A DNA stretch of 64,000 bases from Pestalotiopsis fici W106-1 (lineage: Eukaryota > Ascomycota > Sordariomycetes > Amphisphaeriales > Sporocadaceae): the NCBI RefSeq assembly GCF_000516985.1, contig NW_006917094.1:310001-374000 (forward strand), written 5' to 3'. Below, one piece after another: positions 52,156 to 56,681 of this stretch (position 1 is the first letter of the stretch; the number at the start of each line of letters is the position of its first letter). A model generated the notes under the pieces. That model saw only the letters and a program-made list of their open reading frames with translations, had not been told where the DNA came from and ran no database searches. The translations under genes and the position numbers were made by a program.

Positions 52156-55145
52156 TCACTCTTCGATGTTATTTATCTCATTGGCATAATCAAGTGGAGT
52201 CCTTCCCTTTTGGTCTGTAATCCACGCATCGGCGCCGTGCTGAACTAGTAACGTGACTAGTTCCCAAATTATATCGCTATAGTATCTCGCGTTGCTACAC
52301 GCGTAGTGGATTGGCGTTCTTCCTTCGATATCGGTAGTCGAAACGTCGGCGCCGTGTTTAATCAGTAGCCCGACGTTTTCTAGCCAGGTAGAATCAAATG
52401 ATGAATTTATAGCAATATAATGAAGGGGGGTCCTGCCCTTATTATCGGTGGCCGATACATCAGCACCACGTTCAATAAGTGACATTGCCACCTTGGAAGA
52501 GTATTTGTTTTTGCNNNNNNNNNNNNNNNNNNNNNNNNNNNNNNNNNNNNNNNNNNNNNNNNNNNNNNNNNNNNNNNNNNNNNNNNNNNNNNNNNNNNNN
52601 NNNNNNNNNNNNNNAATATTACCACCTCGGTAGAGTTAGAATTTCTGCAAGCGTGGTGAAGGGGGGTCCTGCCCTCGTTATCGGTGATTGACAGACCGTT
52701 GGTGCCACCGCTTTCAGCCAGCAAATCGACAATGCTAGCTTCCATATCTCGTGAGTGGAAGTTTTTGCTGATCCAGTGCAATGGAGTCTCGCCCTGGTCA
52801 GTGGCAATAGAACAATCAGCGCCAGACTCAATAAGTAGCTTAGCTACTTCATTGCCCCTCTTTGATTTTGTCTGTATCGATCTGAACAGTAGCGTTTCCC
52901 CCAATTCATTTTGAACGGAAGTGTCAGCGCCCAAGGTAAGAAGGAACTTGACTACTGCAACATCTTTTGCCTTAAGCCATGCTTGACGAACTTTATTTCT
53001 AGTAGAAATGGTGTCTTTTCTTTGATGAAGCTCTTTAAGCACAATGTTGTATCCTTTGTCTATTGCAAGTTCCAGTAGCGTTCTCCCAGTGCTACTTCTG
53101 GACCCAAGGTCACATTGATCTGCGAGAAGCAGAAATAGTAGCAACCCTTCGCATCCGTGTGTGAGAAGCTCCGCAGTAGTTTCCCGTCTTTTGTTGAAAT
53201 TGAAGTCTCGAGTAGAACTGCAGAAAAAGTCGCCAAGAGGTGATGGTGTGATGCTCTGAAAGTAAGCCCAAGAGAATTTTGATGACTGATTACCATGAAT
53301 TTTCAACATGGTCTGTACGGCGGAAGTACTTTTTGTGGCCATTGCTGCCAGGATCGGGAGTCCATAACGCTCGTCTTCGACTTTGAAGAAGGACTGCCAA
53401 GATCTATGGGCACGAATAAGGCCTGACGCATCAGACTCGGCTAATATGTACAAGAGGCTGGCCTGGGGAGTATAACGCCGCGTTTTGTGCATTTGGAGTA
53501 GATTGTGCTGTACTATCCATTCTTCACGTGGAAATTCGGCTAGAAATTCCGACTGGCTCACGCCACTGTTCTCTGCTTGCTCGGCATGATGCAAGATACC
53601 AGCTATGGCATACTCCAGGAAAGGGAGGGCCTGTTTTGTGGTCTGACTGGTGGGATCCTCCACTTTTGTCTCAATTCTCGTGCCTACATTCATGTAGGTG
53701 AGGCAACAGTGTTTTAGTGCTTCGTGACTTTGACCATGGGTATTGACCTTCAAGGCAGGGAAGATTTGACCAAGTCCACCTTCTTTCAACAGGAAATCTC
53801 TGACGGACTCATGAATGAACTGGACTCTTGGTATCTTGGCCTTGGTATTTTCCACGACACCTTTCGAGTTGTTGAGAATGTATTTGTAAATATCCTCGTC
53901 CGAAATGCTGTCAGAATGACAGTCCACCAGATATTGTGGCTCGTACCCAGATAAGATTGCAAAGTATAGTTCCTTTGGTGTTAGGGGTTGCTTGGCGAAT
54001 AAAACCCATTGAATGCAAAGAAGAAGTGCATCCTGGTGATTGCTATCACGAGTGAGGATATCGCGGAAAAGCTCGTGCAGATTGGCAGGAAGTTGCTTTA
54101 CTTTCTCTCTTAGGGTATGCCTGCGGCCTGCATCGAACTCCTTGTTCAAGATATCAACCACAAGCACAACCCACATAAAAACTCCGGAAGCTTTTTCTTG
54201 TAGGTCGAGACGGATCTTCTCCGCAAGCTGATCGTGCCCAATACGCAAGGCTGTTCCCAGATATGCAGCGATATCATCTTGGTGCTCGTTTTGCTTCTCA
54301 AGAATGATGCTCAATCCCGTTTCAACGGTGATATATGGGTAATGTCTGCTTGCAAAGCAAATCGAAAGCTGATTTTCGGTGCAGACGAGGTCAGTGAAGA
54401 AACCAACCATTTCTCTGATCTCGTCCTCTTCGCACTCATCTAGTGCATCGACTAGACAAACAACTGAAGTCTGACCCATGCCCTGTATAGCTTGCTCAAA
54501 CAGGGTTTTCAAGGAATCAACATCCCAGTTTCCATACTGGTGGGGCGTGTCCAGCTTGTCCAGCAAACTGGGCTGCTTCTCGAGTAGTTGGACCAAAAGT
54601 GACCGATATAGACCAACAGTTGACTTTTCCAAGGCATGACCTCTGGCATTGAAGAAGAAAGAGATGAGAACATCATTGCTTTTCTTGCTTCTTGACTGCA
54701 TCTGTTGATACAAGAACTTCATCAACGTTGATTTGCCGGCTCCGGGCTTCCCCTTGATCCACAAGAAGTGGTTCTCATCTTGCGATGGATCCTTGTTCTC
54801 CCATTCTTTATAGACTGGTGTCTGCAGAAACCATTTGCAAGTGTTCCTGAATGCTTTTTTGATGCTCGCGTGCCGTGAGTCCATTTGATCAAATCGCAAA
54901 GATTCAAGGATCGATTGTTGGTGACTGCTGGACCCACCCAATACAGCAGGACTACCGATGTTCAAGTTCCCTCTGACATTGATACTCCCACTGTGATTTT
55001 GGAGGCCCGTACCGCCGAAGTGGGTGAACTCGTGGGGATGCTCTTGTCGACTCGATGATGCTTGGGTGGTTGGCCCGGCTTGATCGTTTGTGGTCGGCGG
55101 TTCCCATCGCGGGCGCTTAGTTGGTCGTTCCATGCTAATGGACAC
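52156..55145 (-). CDS. NACHT-ankyrin NLR (STAND) protein, interrupted by an assembly gap
   Basis: Read from 55145, with a second in-frame Met at 55133. Residues 1-40 are Pro/Thr/Ser-rich with RPTKRPRW; residues 43-64 hold a Gly/Asn motif (FGGTGLQ, then GSINVRGNLNI). The NACHT NTPase has a P-loop at 132-140 (GKPGAGKST) and Walker B VCLVDALDE at 229-237. A helical winged region with FIHESVRDFL follows, then ankyrin repeats (GRTPLH signatures) to the stop at 52156. The 100-N run at 52515-52614 lies within the repeats, so length and frame across it are unknown; the downstream repeats are in the frame of 52156-52491. No N-terminal effector domain exists. Such proteins sense ligands through their repeats and trigger regulated cell death. 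The nucleosidase gene is divergent, 417 bp away. Confidence 0.9.
52515..52614. other. Assembly gap (100 N) inside the ankyrin repeats
   Basis: Both gap edges fall at the same register of an ankyrin unit (STEVVI before, SSKVAMSLIE after). Flanking units at 52422-52451 and 52659-52686 are nearly identical in DNA (GGGGTCCTGCCCT then TTATCGGTG), so collapsed near-identical units are likely. 100 is a placeholder length. Confidence 0.95.
54954..55019 (-). other. Candidate amyloid-signalling motif, NLR copy
   Basis: Residues 43-64 of the NLR: F, GGTG, LQ, then GSINVRGNLNI. It matches the C-terminal motif of the divergent nucleosidase at F, GTG, Q, G, V, GN and I. Short, polar and Gly/Asn-rich, placed before NACHT as in known fungal prion-like signalling pairs. 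Confidence 0.55.
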
Positions 55146-55562
55146 GACCCCGGGAATTGTATCCTTTTCTTGTCGTCATAAAGTGCATAGCAGTACAAAT
55201 ATTTGTTGAAGGGAGAAGATCAAATTGCCGAACAAGATCTGTCTGTCGGGAGGGGCAGCGGTGGTGAGGCTGAGCGAGAGGAGATGCACAGTTATGGACC
55301 AATCACCACGTGAATACCAAGCCTTACCATGCAGTCGTGTGAAAATGATGCCCAATTTCCATGCCGACCTTCAGCTGACCTGACTGTTAATATGCCTTGC
55401 AGTCTGCCACGCCTCCGAGAATCGCACAGCCTCGGTCCTGACCCTGGCCGCACTTCTCATAACGATGCGCCGACGTGAAGACTAATGGGAAAAATCGAAA
55501 CTAGTATAATTAACTACTTAGAGAAGTCACGACACAAGTCTCGATTGCTAGCTATAACGACC
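55146..55562. promoter_or_regulatory. Shared divergent promoter of the NLR and the nucleosidase
   Basis: Only 417 bp separate the two start codons, so the genes probably share regulatory DNA. I could not define a TATA box or factor site. Confidence 0.5.
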
Positions 55563-56681
55563 ATGGCAAATCAACGTCAAGATGCAAAGACCACTAACGA
55601 CTACACGGTCGCGATCGTGTGCGCAATCGAGTTTGAAATGAGCGCCGTCCGCTACATGCTCGACGAGGAACATGCACGCTTACCAAGCAGCCATGGTGAC
55701 TCCAACAATTACATCTTGGGCAAACTCTGCGGCCACCACGTCGTGCTCGCTTGTCTTCCGGGGAATCAGGGCAAAAGTGCAGCAGCCATTGTCGCAACGA
55801 ACCTCGATCGCACTTTTCCGTCCATCAAGTGGCGTTTTCTCGCGGGCATTGGTGGAGGTGTGCCCAGCGATAGAAACGACATTCGTCTGGGTGACGTGGT
55901 TGTGAGCATGCCCGAGGGCGAGTACGGTGGAGTAGTGCAGTATGACTTGGGCAAGGATATCGACACTGGCTTCAAGTTGAAGGGGTTCTTATCGGCCCCG
56001 CCGTCGCGGCTGCGGTCTGCAGTGAACAACATGCGATCAGATCATCGACTCGATGACAACAAAATTGAAGAGTTTGTGACTGCCATGCTGCAAAGAGGCC
56101 GGCGTCTGAACGTCTATCGTCGACCAGCTGGCGATACGGACGTCTTGTTTGATGCAGACTATGCACACCCAAGCGATCAGCCTTCTTGCAGCTCCTGCGA
56201 TAGAACCAAAGTCGTCGCAAGACCGCCTCGCGAATGGGACGGCCCTGAAATCCACTATGGACTCATCGCCTCTGGTGACCGTGTCATGCGAAGTGCAGTC
56301 AAGAGAAACTTGCACGTGCGCAACATTGGTGATATCCTCTGCTTTGAGATGGAAGCGGCCGGATTGTCGACCGAGTTTCCCTACATCGTTATCAGGGGCA
56401 TCTCAGACTACGCAGACTCTCACAAGAATGATGCATGGCAGCACTATGCTGCTGCAGCCGCTGCTGCATGCACCAAAGAGTTTCTGACTTATCTGGACCC
56501 GGAGGCGCCTTTTAAGGAGGCGCAGACTGCGAGTGGCTCCCCGAATGATTGGAACAGTCACAATGGCCAGAATGGTCAATCTATCCACTCAACATTTACT
56601 GGCACTGGAGTACAGCATACAGGCACGGGCAATTTCTCCGTAGGAGGAAATATGCGCATTAATGGGGGGCAGGGGCGTTAG
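55563..56681 (+). CDS. PNP/UDP-type nucleoside phosphorylase or nucleosidase, NLR-linked effector candidate
   Basis: 372 residues from the ATG at 55563 (MANQRQDAKTTNDY, good context); an earlier in-frame ATG at 55485 would add 26 atypical residues. Fold hallmarks: YTVAIVCAIEFEMSAV strand, AGIGGGVPS, NDIRLGDVVVS (phosphate or ribose loop), FEMEAAG (ribose-binding Glu) and RGISDYADSHKND (purine-side Asp). The last about 35 residues are a Ser/Asn/Gly linker followed by FTGTGVQ and GNFSVGGNMRI (345-366), like the NLR N-terminal motif. PNP-family domains act as effectors in fungal NLRs and in bacterial antiphage systems, where some cleave ATP. Here the domain is a separate protein next to an effector-less NLR. 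Enzymatic specificity cannot be read from sequence. Confidence 0.88.
   Translation: MANQRQDAKTTNDYTVAIVCAIEFEMSAVRYMLDEEHARLPSSHGDSNNYILGKLCGHHVVLACLPGNQGKSAAAIVATNLDRTFPSIKWRFLAGIGGGVPSDRNDIRLGDVVVSMPEGEYGGVVQYDLGKDIDTGFKLKGFLSAPPSRLRSAVNNMRSDHRLDDNKIEEFVTAMLQRGRRLNVYRRPAGDTDVLFDADYAHPSDQPSCSSCDRTKVVARPPREWDGPEIHYGLIASGDRVMRSAVKRNLHVRNIGDILCFEMEAAGLSTEFPYIVIRGISDYADSHKNDAWQHYAAAAAAACTKEFLTYLDPEAPFKEAQTASGSPNDWNSHNGQNGQSIHSTFTGTGVQHTGTGNFSVGGNMRINGGQGR
56595..56660 (+). other. Candidate amyloid-signalling motif, effector copy
   Basis: Encodes residues 345-366 of the nucleosidase (F, TGTGVQ, then GNFSVGGNMRI), at the extreme C terminus after a flexible linker. Aligns to NLR residues 43-63 with one single-residue gap. 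Confidence 0.55.

What the first reader, a model, noticed from the sequence alone, without database searches (positions are those of the whole stretch)
52156..56681. Divergent NLR and nucleosidase share a short Gly/Asn motif: candidate amyloid-templated immune pair
Seen: the NLR lacks an N-terminal effector and has a motif at residues 43-64; the adjacent, divergently transcribed PNP-type protein has a like motif at its C terminus after a flexible linker. Aligned with one gap, they share F, GTG, Q, G, V, GN and I, with L/V, I/F and L/M conservative pairs. Known: in NWD2/HET-S and in sigma- and PP-motif systems the NLR N-terminal prion motif templates the C-terminal motif of the effector encoded next door. 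Inferred: this pair works the same way, with a nucleotide-cleaving effector. I cannot tell whether the motif belongs to a catalogued class.
Basis: partly seen in the sequence, partly recalled or inferred. Interest (0 to 1): 0.92.

Follow-up and report, generated by a model that had tools for sequence, protein, structure and literature searches.

The report
Fungal immune receptor–enzyme pair sharing amyloid motif
Two neighbouring genes of a plant-associated fungus encode an immune receptor and a nucleotide-cleaving enzyme that share a short motif already known to form amyloid in such pairs, so the pair is a real but previously described kind of cell-death switch, with the added twist that several other receptors in the genome carry the same motif.

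Summary
A divergently transcribed NACHT-ankyrin NLR (PFICI_06075, Pestalotiopsis fici) and a PNP_UDP enzyme share a motif at the receptor N terminus and the enzyme C terminus. Profiles built from relatives of one side, without the window's proteins, recognise the other side (0 of 5000 composition shuffles reach the score). The motif recurs: 20 PNP/NLR pairs appear to share a contig among the two top-120 homologue lists; 14 of 20 show it on both sides. It is PUASM, published in 2022 (PMC9815663), with amyloid and prion tests on a Colletotrichum pair; the window's enzyme motif fits that consensus. So the pair is a new member of a known kind. Beyond the published description: the receptors are NACHT-ANK; 51 of 59 motif-bearing relatives begin with a basic, Myc-NLS-like peptide; and the P. 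fici genome holds at least eight PUASM receptors, while only 1 of 32 examined PNP places has a PUASM, suggesting many sensors wired to one executioner. Amyloid templating and the enzyme's substrate are inferred here, not tested.

The parts
52156..55133 (-). NACHT-ankyrin NLR gene (PFICI_06075), interrupted by an assembly gap
   Evidence: record name
55104..55127 (-). conserved basic, Myc-type NLS-like peptide at NLR residues 3-10
   Evidence: K[KR]x[KR] within the first 25 residues of 51 of 59 motif-bearing NLRs, against 15 of 61 others and 0.8% of random windows; the NLS reading is a recalled resemblance
54957..55019 (-). receptor-side PUASM, NLR residues 39-59
54345..54845 (-). NACHT (NPHP3_N) nucleotide-binding domain, NLR residues 97-263
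   Evidence: Pfam PF24883 E 1e-34
52159..52856 (-). ankyrin-repeat sensor region
   Evidence: Pfam Ank_2 in P0002 and P0003
52515..52614 (.). 100-N assembly gap inside the ankyrin array
   Evidence: sequence
55134..55562 (.). shared divergent upstream region of the two genes
   Evidence: gene coordinates
55563..56681 (+). stand-alone PNP_UDP nucleosidase/phosphorylase-family effector gene (database start; an in-frame ATG lies at 55485)
55605..56477 (+). PNP_UDP_1 catalytic domain
   Evidence: Pfam PF01048; MTA/SAH nucleosidase structures
56595..56660 (+). effector-side PUASM, residues 371-392 of the long frame
   Evidence: matches FxGxGxQxxGxGxF of PMC9815663

Best explanation
The pair is a PUASM amyloid-signalling unit. 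The ankyrin repeats of the NLR sense a cue; the NACHT domain binds nucleotide and oligomerises; the clustered receptor N termini bring their motifs together and fold them into a beta-arch amyloid nucleus; the nucleus templates the same fold in the flexible C-terminal motif of the PNP enzyme; the enzymes gather and are activated, cleave a purine nucleotide or nucleoside (ATP by analogy with bacterial immune PNPs) and arrest or kill the cell. Shown here: gene order, domains, both motifs, their recurrence in paired genes of relatives, conserved catalytic residues. Shown by others for a homologous pair: amyloid formation by both peptides, and prion behaviour of the effector-side motif. Inferred: oligomerisation, templating between these two proteins, substrate, cell death, the cue.
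For: Motif identity: the enzyme tail fits FxGxGxQxxGxGxF at every fixed position and resembles the tested Colletotrichum peptide EQB50682.1_332_355. Cross-recognition by side-specific HMMs. Recurrence: core pattern in 86 of 120 PNP homologues and 59 of 120 NLR homologues, window included; 20 pairs on contigs of equal length, eight of them with consecutive locus tags (names): 18 of 20 PNPs, 15 of 20 NLRs, 14 of 20 both with the pattern. Trade-off with fusion: 17 of the 120 NLR relatives have a PNP or HET domain fused in front; only 1 of these 17 has the pattern anywhere before the P-loop (P0133, a doubtful model), against 59 of 103 others (Fisher p 1e-4). The 9 relatives annotated with a fused PNP share 54-56% identity in the NACHT region and 40-47% in the PNP with the window's proteins. 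Cognate residue match: the residue between the two Gly is the same within 6 of 14 pairs against 1.8 expected; 30 of 20000 permutations reach it. MTAN-type catalytic positions are conserved: E25, M263-E264 and D282 are invariant in 45 aligned sequences (E. coli numbering recalled). The PNP matches a PADLOC bacterial PN-superfamily effector model, E 1.6e-14.
Against: No assay was possible. The receptor-side motif is shorter by one residue than the enzyme-side one and lacks the G-x-F half of the published pattern. 6 of 20 pairs lack the pattern on one or both sides in the annotated models, among them the pair of Pestalotiopsis sp. 9143b, where the receptor side is degenerate, and that of Neopestalotiopsis sp. 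37M, where the PNP model has no motif. The AlphaFold model is poor (mean pLDDT 54.6; tail below 50) and says nothing on a beta-arch. The cognate-residue signal is one of 28 columns and several pairs are close relatives (three Xylaria rows share Y). Co-divergence of PNP and NLR (Mantel r 0.83) is expected for any two genes following the same species tree. The receptor bears an NLS-like peptide and the enzyme does not (none in the window PNP; 3 of 102 short PNP relatives within 40 residues), which leaves the compartment of contact unexplained.
Confidence: 0.86

Rival explanations
1. The motif is a genuine docking element shared by receptor and enzyme but works as an ordinary heterotypic beta contact or scaffold, not as a self-propagating amyloid.
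For: All evidence here is sequence; the two sides differ in length and in the charge of the residue after the F (acidic on 11 of 14 receptors, on none of the 14 enzymes), which could suit one-to-one docking.
Against: PUASM peptides of a homologous pair form ThT-positive aggregates and the effector-side motif behaves as a prion in Podospora (PMC9815663, passages).
Confidence: 0.08
2. The NLR side is decaying and this particular pair no longer signals.
For: The receptor motif lacks the G-x-F half of the pattern and scores only 8.9-14 bits with the enzyme-side profile, depending on the length of sequence given; the frame meets an assembly gap; the receptor of Pestalotiopsis sp. 9143b is more degenerate still.
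Against: A short receptor form is usual for the family: 22.9-26.1 bits with the receptor-side profile built without it; the frame is open on both sides of the gap; the pair is kept in Neopestalotiopsis clavispora at 84% (PNP) and 78% (NLR) identity.
Confidence: 0.05
3. The likeness is chance between two Gly/Asn-rich tails.
For: Both segments are rich in G, N and S; with the NLR motif segment alone shuffled, 1 of 5000 shuffles scores higher.
Against: 0 of 5000 for the full N terminus and for both PNP tests; recurrence across pairs; a Gly/Asn-rich tail of another P. fici PNP (L005) is not listed by either profile at E<=5.
Confidence: 0.01

Closest known systems
PUASM, the PNP_UDP-associated amyloid signalling motif (Wojciechowski et al. 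2022, PMC9815663)
   Same: C terminus of a PNP_UDP protein and N terminus of the NLR encoded next door; enzyme motif fits FxGxGxQxxGxGxF; Pezizomycotina.
   Different: The paper reports PUASM NLRs as NACHT or NACHT-WD40; here NACHT-ANK. The receptor-side arch is shortened. The paper's co-occurrence counts are near one to one (25 NLR / 21 effectors in 18 strains); here at least eight receptors to one effector found.
NWD2/HET-S (HRAM), sigma and PP (RHIM-like) amyloid pairs
   Same: Same logic: receptor N-terminal motif, effector C-terminal motif, adjacent genes.
   Different: Different motif: no Pfam hit in either motif region at E<=10; the effector is an enzyme of the PNP family rather than a HeLo-type pore former.
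Bacterial immune PNP effectors (Detocs and relatives, ATP cleavage)
   Same: PNP superfamily by sequence; PADLOC PN-superfamily effector model E 1.6e-14.
   Different: Activated by other partners; substrate of the fungal enzyme untested. Rousset et al. 2023 itself was not read; its content is known to me here only from passages of PMC11249213 and PMC10197012.

Membership tests
PUASM amyloid signalling pair | FxGxGxQxxGxGxF pattern, effector side | tested here: met
   PNP residues 371-384 fit every fixed position
PUASM amyloid signalling pair | Same pattern, receptor side | tested here: inconclusive
   FxGxGxQ present; GxF half altered and one residue shorter, and the listed receptor-side relatives are also shortened there; the enzyme-side HMM still detects it
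PUASM amyloid signalling pair | Effector is a PNP_UDP protein with the motif at its C terminus | tested here: met
   motif ends 6 residues before the stop
PUASM amyloid signalling pair | Motif at the N terminus of an NLR encoded next door | tested here: met
PUASM amyloid signalling pair | Reported NLR architectures NACHT or NACHT-WD40 (reported by the authors, not defining) | tested here: not met
   ankyrin repeats instead
PUASM amyloid signalling pair | Peptides form amyloid; effector motif propagates as a prion | not testable with these tools
   done for a Colletotrichum pair in PMC9815663
HRAM, sigma or PP motif | Match to the Pfam models of those motifs (PF11558, PF17106, PF17046 as named in PMC12261475) | tested here: not met
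   no family at E<=10 in NLR 1-95 or the PNP tail; HMMER filters may drop weak matches
Fungal NLR (STAND) | NACHT domain plus superstructure-forming repeats | tested here: met
   NPHP3_N, NACHT and Ank hits over cut-off
ATP-cleaving immune PNP | PNP domain with conserved catalytic Glu, Met-Glu and Asp | tested here: met
   by sequence; the predicted model was too poor to use
ATP-cleaving immune PNP | Cleaves ATP on activation | not testable with these tools
   none

The most novel reading that the evidence does not exclude
In Pestalotiopsis fici one PUASM-tagged nucleosidase is a common executioner for at least eight NACHT-ANK receptors, seven of them encoded elsewhere, each reading a different cue through its own ankyrin array but all firing the same amyloid switch; the receptors carry a conserved nuclear-import-like peptide, so the switch may be thrown in the nucleus. 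This would be a sensor-helper network, like those of plant NLRs, built on amyloid templating.
Probability: 0.4. Interest if true: 0.65.

Novelty: new member of a known kind. Interest (0 to 1): 0.38.

Why it matters
The pair extends PUASM signalling to NACHT-ankyrin receptors, so far seen here mostly in Xylariales and their kin, and gives a testable many-receptors-to-one-enzyme circuit. If true, amyloid templating would serve as a shared bus between diversifying sensors and one fixed killer enzyme, and the within-pair match of the GxG residue offers a first handle on what makes amyloid partners specific.

Tried and rejected
AlphaFold of the PNP from 45 sequences: mean pLDDT 54.6, tail below 50; not used, and no fold search was made on it.

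Homologue search with the PNP tail alone: 3 candidates, only the window protein returned; too few shared words, so it says nothing about other effector types with PUASM.

P0133 (Truncatella) reads as a PNP-NLR fusion joined inside the motif. It is labelled partial and may be a gene model spliced across two neighbouring genes; it is counted against the trade-off.

The fusion test was first made with the pattern sought only in the first 170 residues (0 of 13 against 59 of 107), which is unfair to fused proteins; it was redone over everything before the P-loop, and with four more fused relatives found by BLAST (1 of 17 against 59 of 103). The outcome is the same.

Co-divergence (Mantel) is reported but not counted as support, since both genes follow the species tree. 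The Detocs primary paper was not among the 12 of 27 papers listed. Sigma, PP and HRAM were considered and set aside.
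Full report
What is there. The NLR lies on the minus strand, 55133 to 52156. It has no recognisable effector domain before the NACHT/NPHP3_N domain (residues 97-263) and ends in ankyrin repeats. A gap of exactly 100 N (52515-52614) sits in the ankyrin array, and the database model bridges it, so the number of repeats is unknown. The PNP gene lies on the plus strand, 55563 (or 55485) to 56681, head to head with the NLR and 429 bases away. 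Its PF01048 domain is followed by a linker and the motif, which ends six residues before the stop.

Is the likeness real? I took the 120 best homologues of each protein, the window's own included (of 7623 and 4370 found), and extracted the motif by a core pattern: 86 of 120 PNP tails and 59 of 120 NLR N termini have it. Profiles were built from 84 PNP-side and 58 NLR-side rows, the window's own proteins left out. The PNP-side profile finds the window NLR N terminus at 14.0 bits and the NLR-side profile finds the window PNP tail at 21.8 bits; none of 5000 shuffles of the same sequence reaches either. With only the short motif segment shuffled, 1 of 5000 and 0 of 5000 do. Across 251,224 residues of six-frame reading frames from 51 loci the best unrelated stretch listed reaches 6.7 bits with the NLR-side profile; with the PNP-side profile it is 7.1 bits over 74 loci, not far below the 8.9 bits of the longer cut of the window NLR.

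Does it recur in neighbours? Contigs of equal length in the two homologue lists, which I take as the same contig, give 21 matches, of which I set aside one (P0008 with a second NLR on the same contig); 20 pairs remain. Eight have consecutive locus tags in the names, for example Neopestalotiopsis clavispora G7054_g7087/g7088, Xylaria flabelliformis FHL15_003275/003276 and Pyricularia oryzae MCOR16_009697/009696; one (E8E14_013213/013224) has not; for the rest the distance is not known. In these 20, the PNP motif is found in 18, the NLR motif in 15, both in 14. Of the five NLRs without it, P0170 and P0189 begin at the NACHT boundary and may be truncated models, and P0129 keeps a degenerate form. 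A further sign of linkage: 17 of the 120 relatives of the receptor carry a PNP or HET domain fused in front, and only 1 of the 17 has the pattern before its P-loop, against 59 of 103 others (Fisher p 1e-4). Fusion and motif look like alternative ways to connect.

Identification. Wojciechowski et al. 2022 (PMC9815663; outline, passages and sections 19 and 27 read) describe PUASM, pattern FxGxGxQxxGxGxF, uniquely tied to PNP_UDP proteins and to NLRs next door. They tested the pair EQB50682.1/EQB50683.1 of Colletotrichum gloeosporioides: both peptides aggregate and raise ThT fluorescence, and the effector-side motif behaves as a prion in Podospora. The window's enzyme tail fits the pattern at every fixed position. 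The receptor side keeps FxGxGxQ but is shorter after it, as are the listed receptor-side relatives. A library search for the name PUASM lists 11 papers, of which PMC9815663 and PMC12261475 concern this motif; the other 9 look, by title and abstract, like unrelated uses of the same letters. Whether P. fici was in the 2022 data set I cannot say: the main text does not name Pestalotiopsis and supplements could not be read. No Pfam model matches either segment.

Mechanism. The catalytic positions of MTA/SAH nucleosidases are conserved: E25, M263-E264 and D282 (P0004 numbering) are invariant in 45 aligned sequences (match to solved nucleosidases; E. coli numbering recalled). The enzyme also matches a bacterial PN-superfamily defence effector model. 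Reviews name PNP_UDP modules as immune ATP hydrolases or nucleosidases (PMC12881547 and PMC10197012, passages). The best reading is: sensing by ankyrin repeats, NACHT oligomerisation, N-terminal amyloid nucleus, templating of the PNP tail, activation of nucleotide cleavage, cell death. Only the anatomy and its recurrence are shown here.

Beyond the published picture, receptors. The paper calls PUASM NLRs NACHT or NACHT-WD40; this family is NACHT-ANK.

Ratio. A search of the P. fici genome with the NLR's first 377 residues gives 51 places. Loci were held for the best 30; the best 8, and none of the other 22, carry a receptor-side PUASM; the remaining 21 were not examined. Five of the eight (L023-L027) are among the rows from which the NLR-side profile was built, so they match it by construction; the other three, the window's included, are not. 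The independent PNP-side profile lists six of the eight at E<=0.42 and misses L023 and L028. A search with the PNP gives 42 matches, which I group into 34 places, plus one more from the PF01048 search. I examined the stretch behind the domain in 32 of these 35; only the window's has the motif. Not examined: two long frames that look like PNP fused to other domains and one 75-residue fragment; and in at least two of the 32 (frames of 1332 and 1201 residues) the end of the frame lies beyond the held stretch. Searches ignored introns and looked about 0.4 to 1.5 kb past the matched piece, so a distant tail exon could be missed. No PNP match lies within 10 kb of the other seven receptors, and their upstream flanks (about 5.5 kb each) hold no enzyme-side PUASM; their downstream sides were seen for 1.5 kb past the matched piece only. 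The seven are scattered over the receptor tree, and for some of them the nearest Neopestalotiopsis relatives keep the motif (PFICI_13899, PFICI_09425 and, with weak support, PFICI_00241), which argues against decay. Three of the eight have Q at the Gln position, five have S or A; receptors of the S or A type do pair with a PUASM PNP on the same contig in other fungi (P0139, P0131, P0169), so they are plausible partners. The 2022 paper found a high receptor-to-effector ratio for the HRAM3-like motif (mean 5.7:1) but 25 to 21 for PUASM.

Leader peptide. A basic N-terminal peptide of the type MEPPAKRxRL stands before the motif in most of these NLRs: K[KR]x[KR] lies within the first 25 residues of 51 of 59 motif-bearing NLRs, against 15 of 61 others and 0.8% of random windows. 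It resembles the c-Myc nuclear import signal (recalled). The window PNP has no such stretch, nor do 99 of 102 short PNP relatives within 40 residues. The 2022 main text has no word beginning with nuclear or NLS. In a library search for fungal NLR, nuclear localization signal, NACHT and amyloid, 42 papers held three of the terms; none of the ten listed holds the NLS term.

Pair specificity. In 14 pairs with both motifs, the residue between the two Gly is identical within 6 pairs against 1.8 by permutation (30 of 20000); all-column identity is 142 against 133 (571 of 20000). With 28 columns and related rows this is suggestive only.

Verdict. As a discovery the pair is a new member of a known kind. 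The receptor-to-effector imbalance and the basic leader are the parts worth following.

Noticed in passing
55104-55127 (-): Conserved basic Myc-NLS-like N terminus on the NLR family, ahead of the amyloid motif; 51 of 59 motif-bearing relatives.
   Followed up: partly
52515-52614; also L024: Stretches of N fall inside the ankyrin arrays of two P. fici PUASM-type NLRs; the database model of PFICI_06075 bridges the first, so repeats may be missing.
   Followed up: partly
L005 (G000 contig 3, about 705 kb): Another P. fici PNP protein ends in a different Gly/Asn-rich tail (TISNNNFGNGTRIHFGDVHSVG), possibly another signalling motif.
   Followed up: no
P0004 residues 202-213 (window 56166-56201): An invariant H and nearly invariant CxxCD in the fungal PNP domain, perhaps a metal site.
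   Followed up: no
P0133 (Truncatella angustata): Protein model reading as PNP joined to NLR within the motif, labelled partial; a true fusion or a mis-spliced model.
   Followed up: partly
13532-38992: Likely secondary-metabolite cluster: highly reducing polyketide synthase (32004-37398, split frame), berberine-type FAD oxidase (13532-14971), Zn2Cys6 regulator (37637-38992).
   Followed up: no
42404-45583 (-): ISWI-like chromatin remodeller (SNF2, HAND, SLIDE domains).
   Followed up: no
48052-63772: Other neighbours: TAPR1-like 48052-48876, tRNA-editing type (tRNA_SAD) 49580-50422, acyltransferase 58850-60424, acyl-CoA dehydrogenase 62420-63772; no NLR or PNP among the ten further ORFs scanned.
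   Followed up: no
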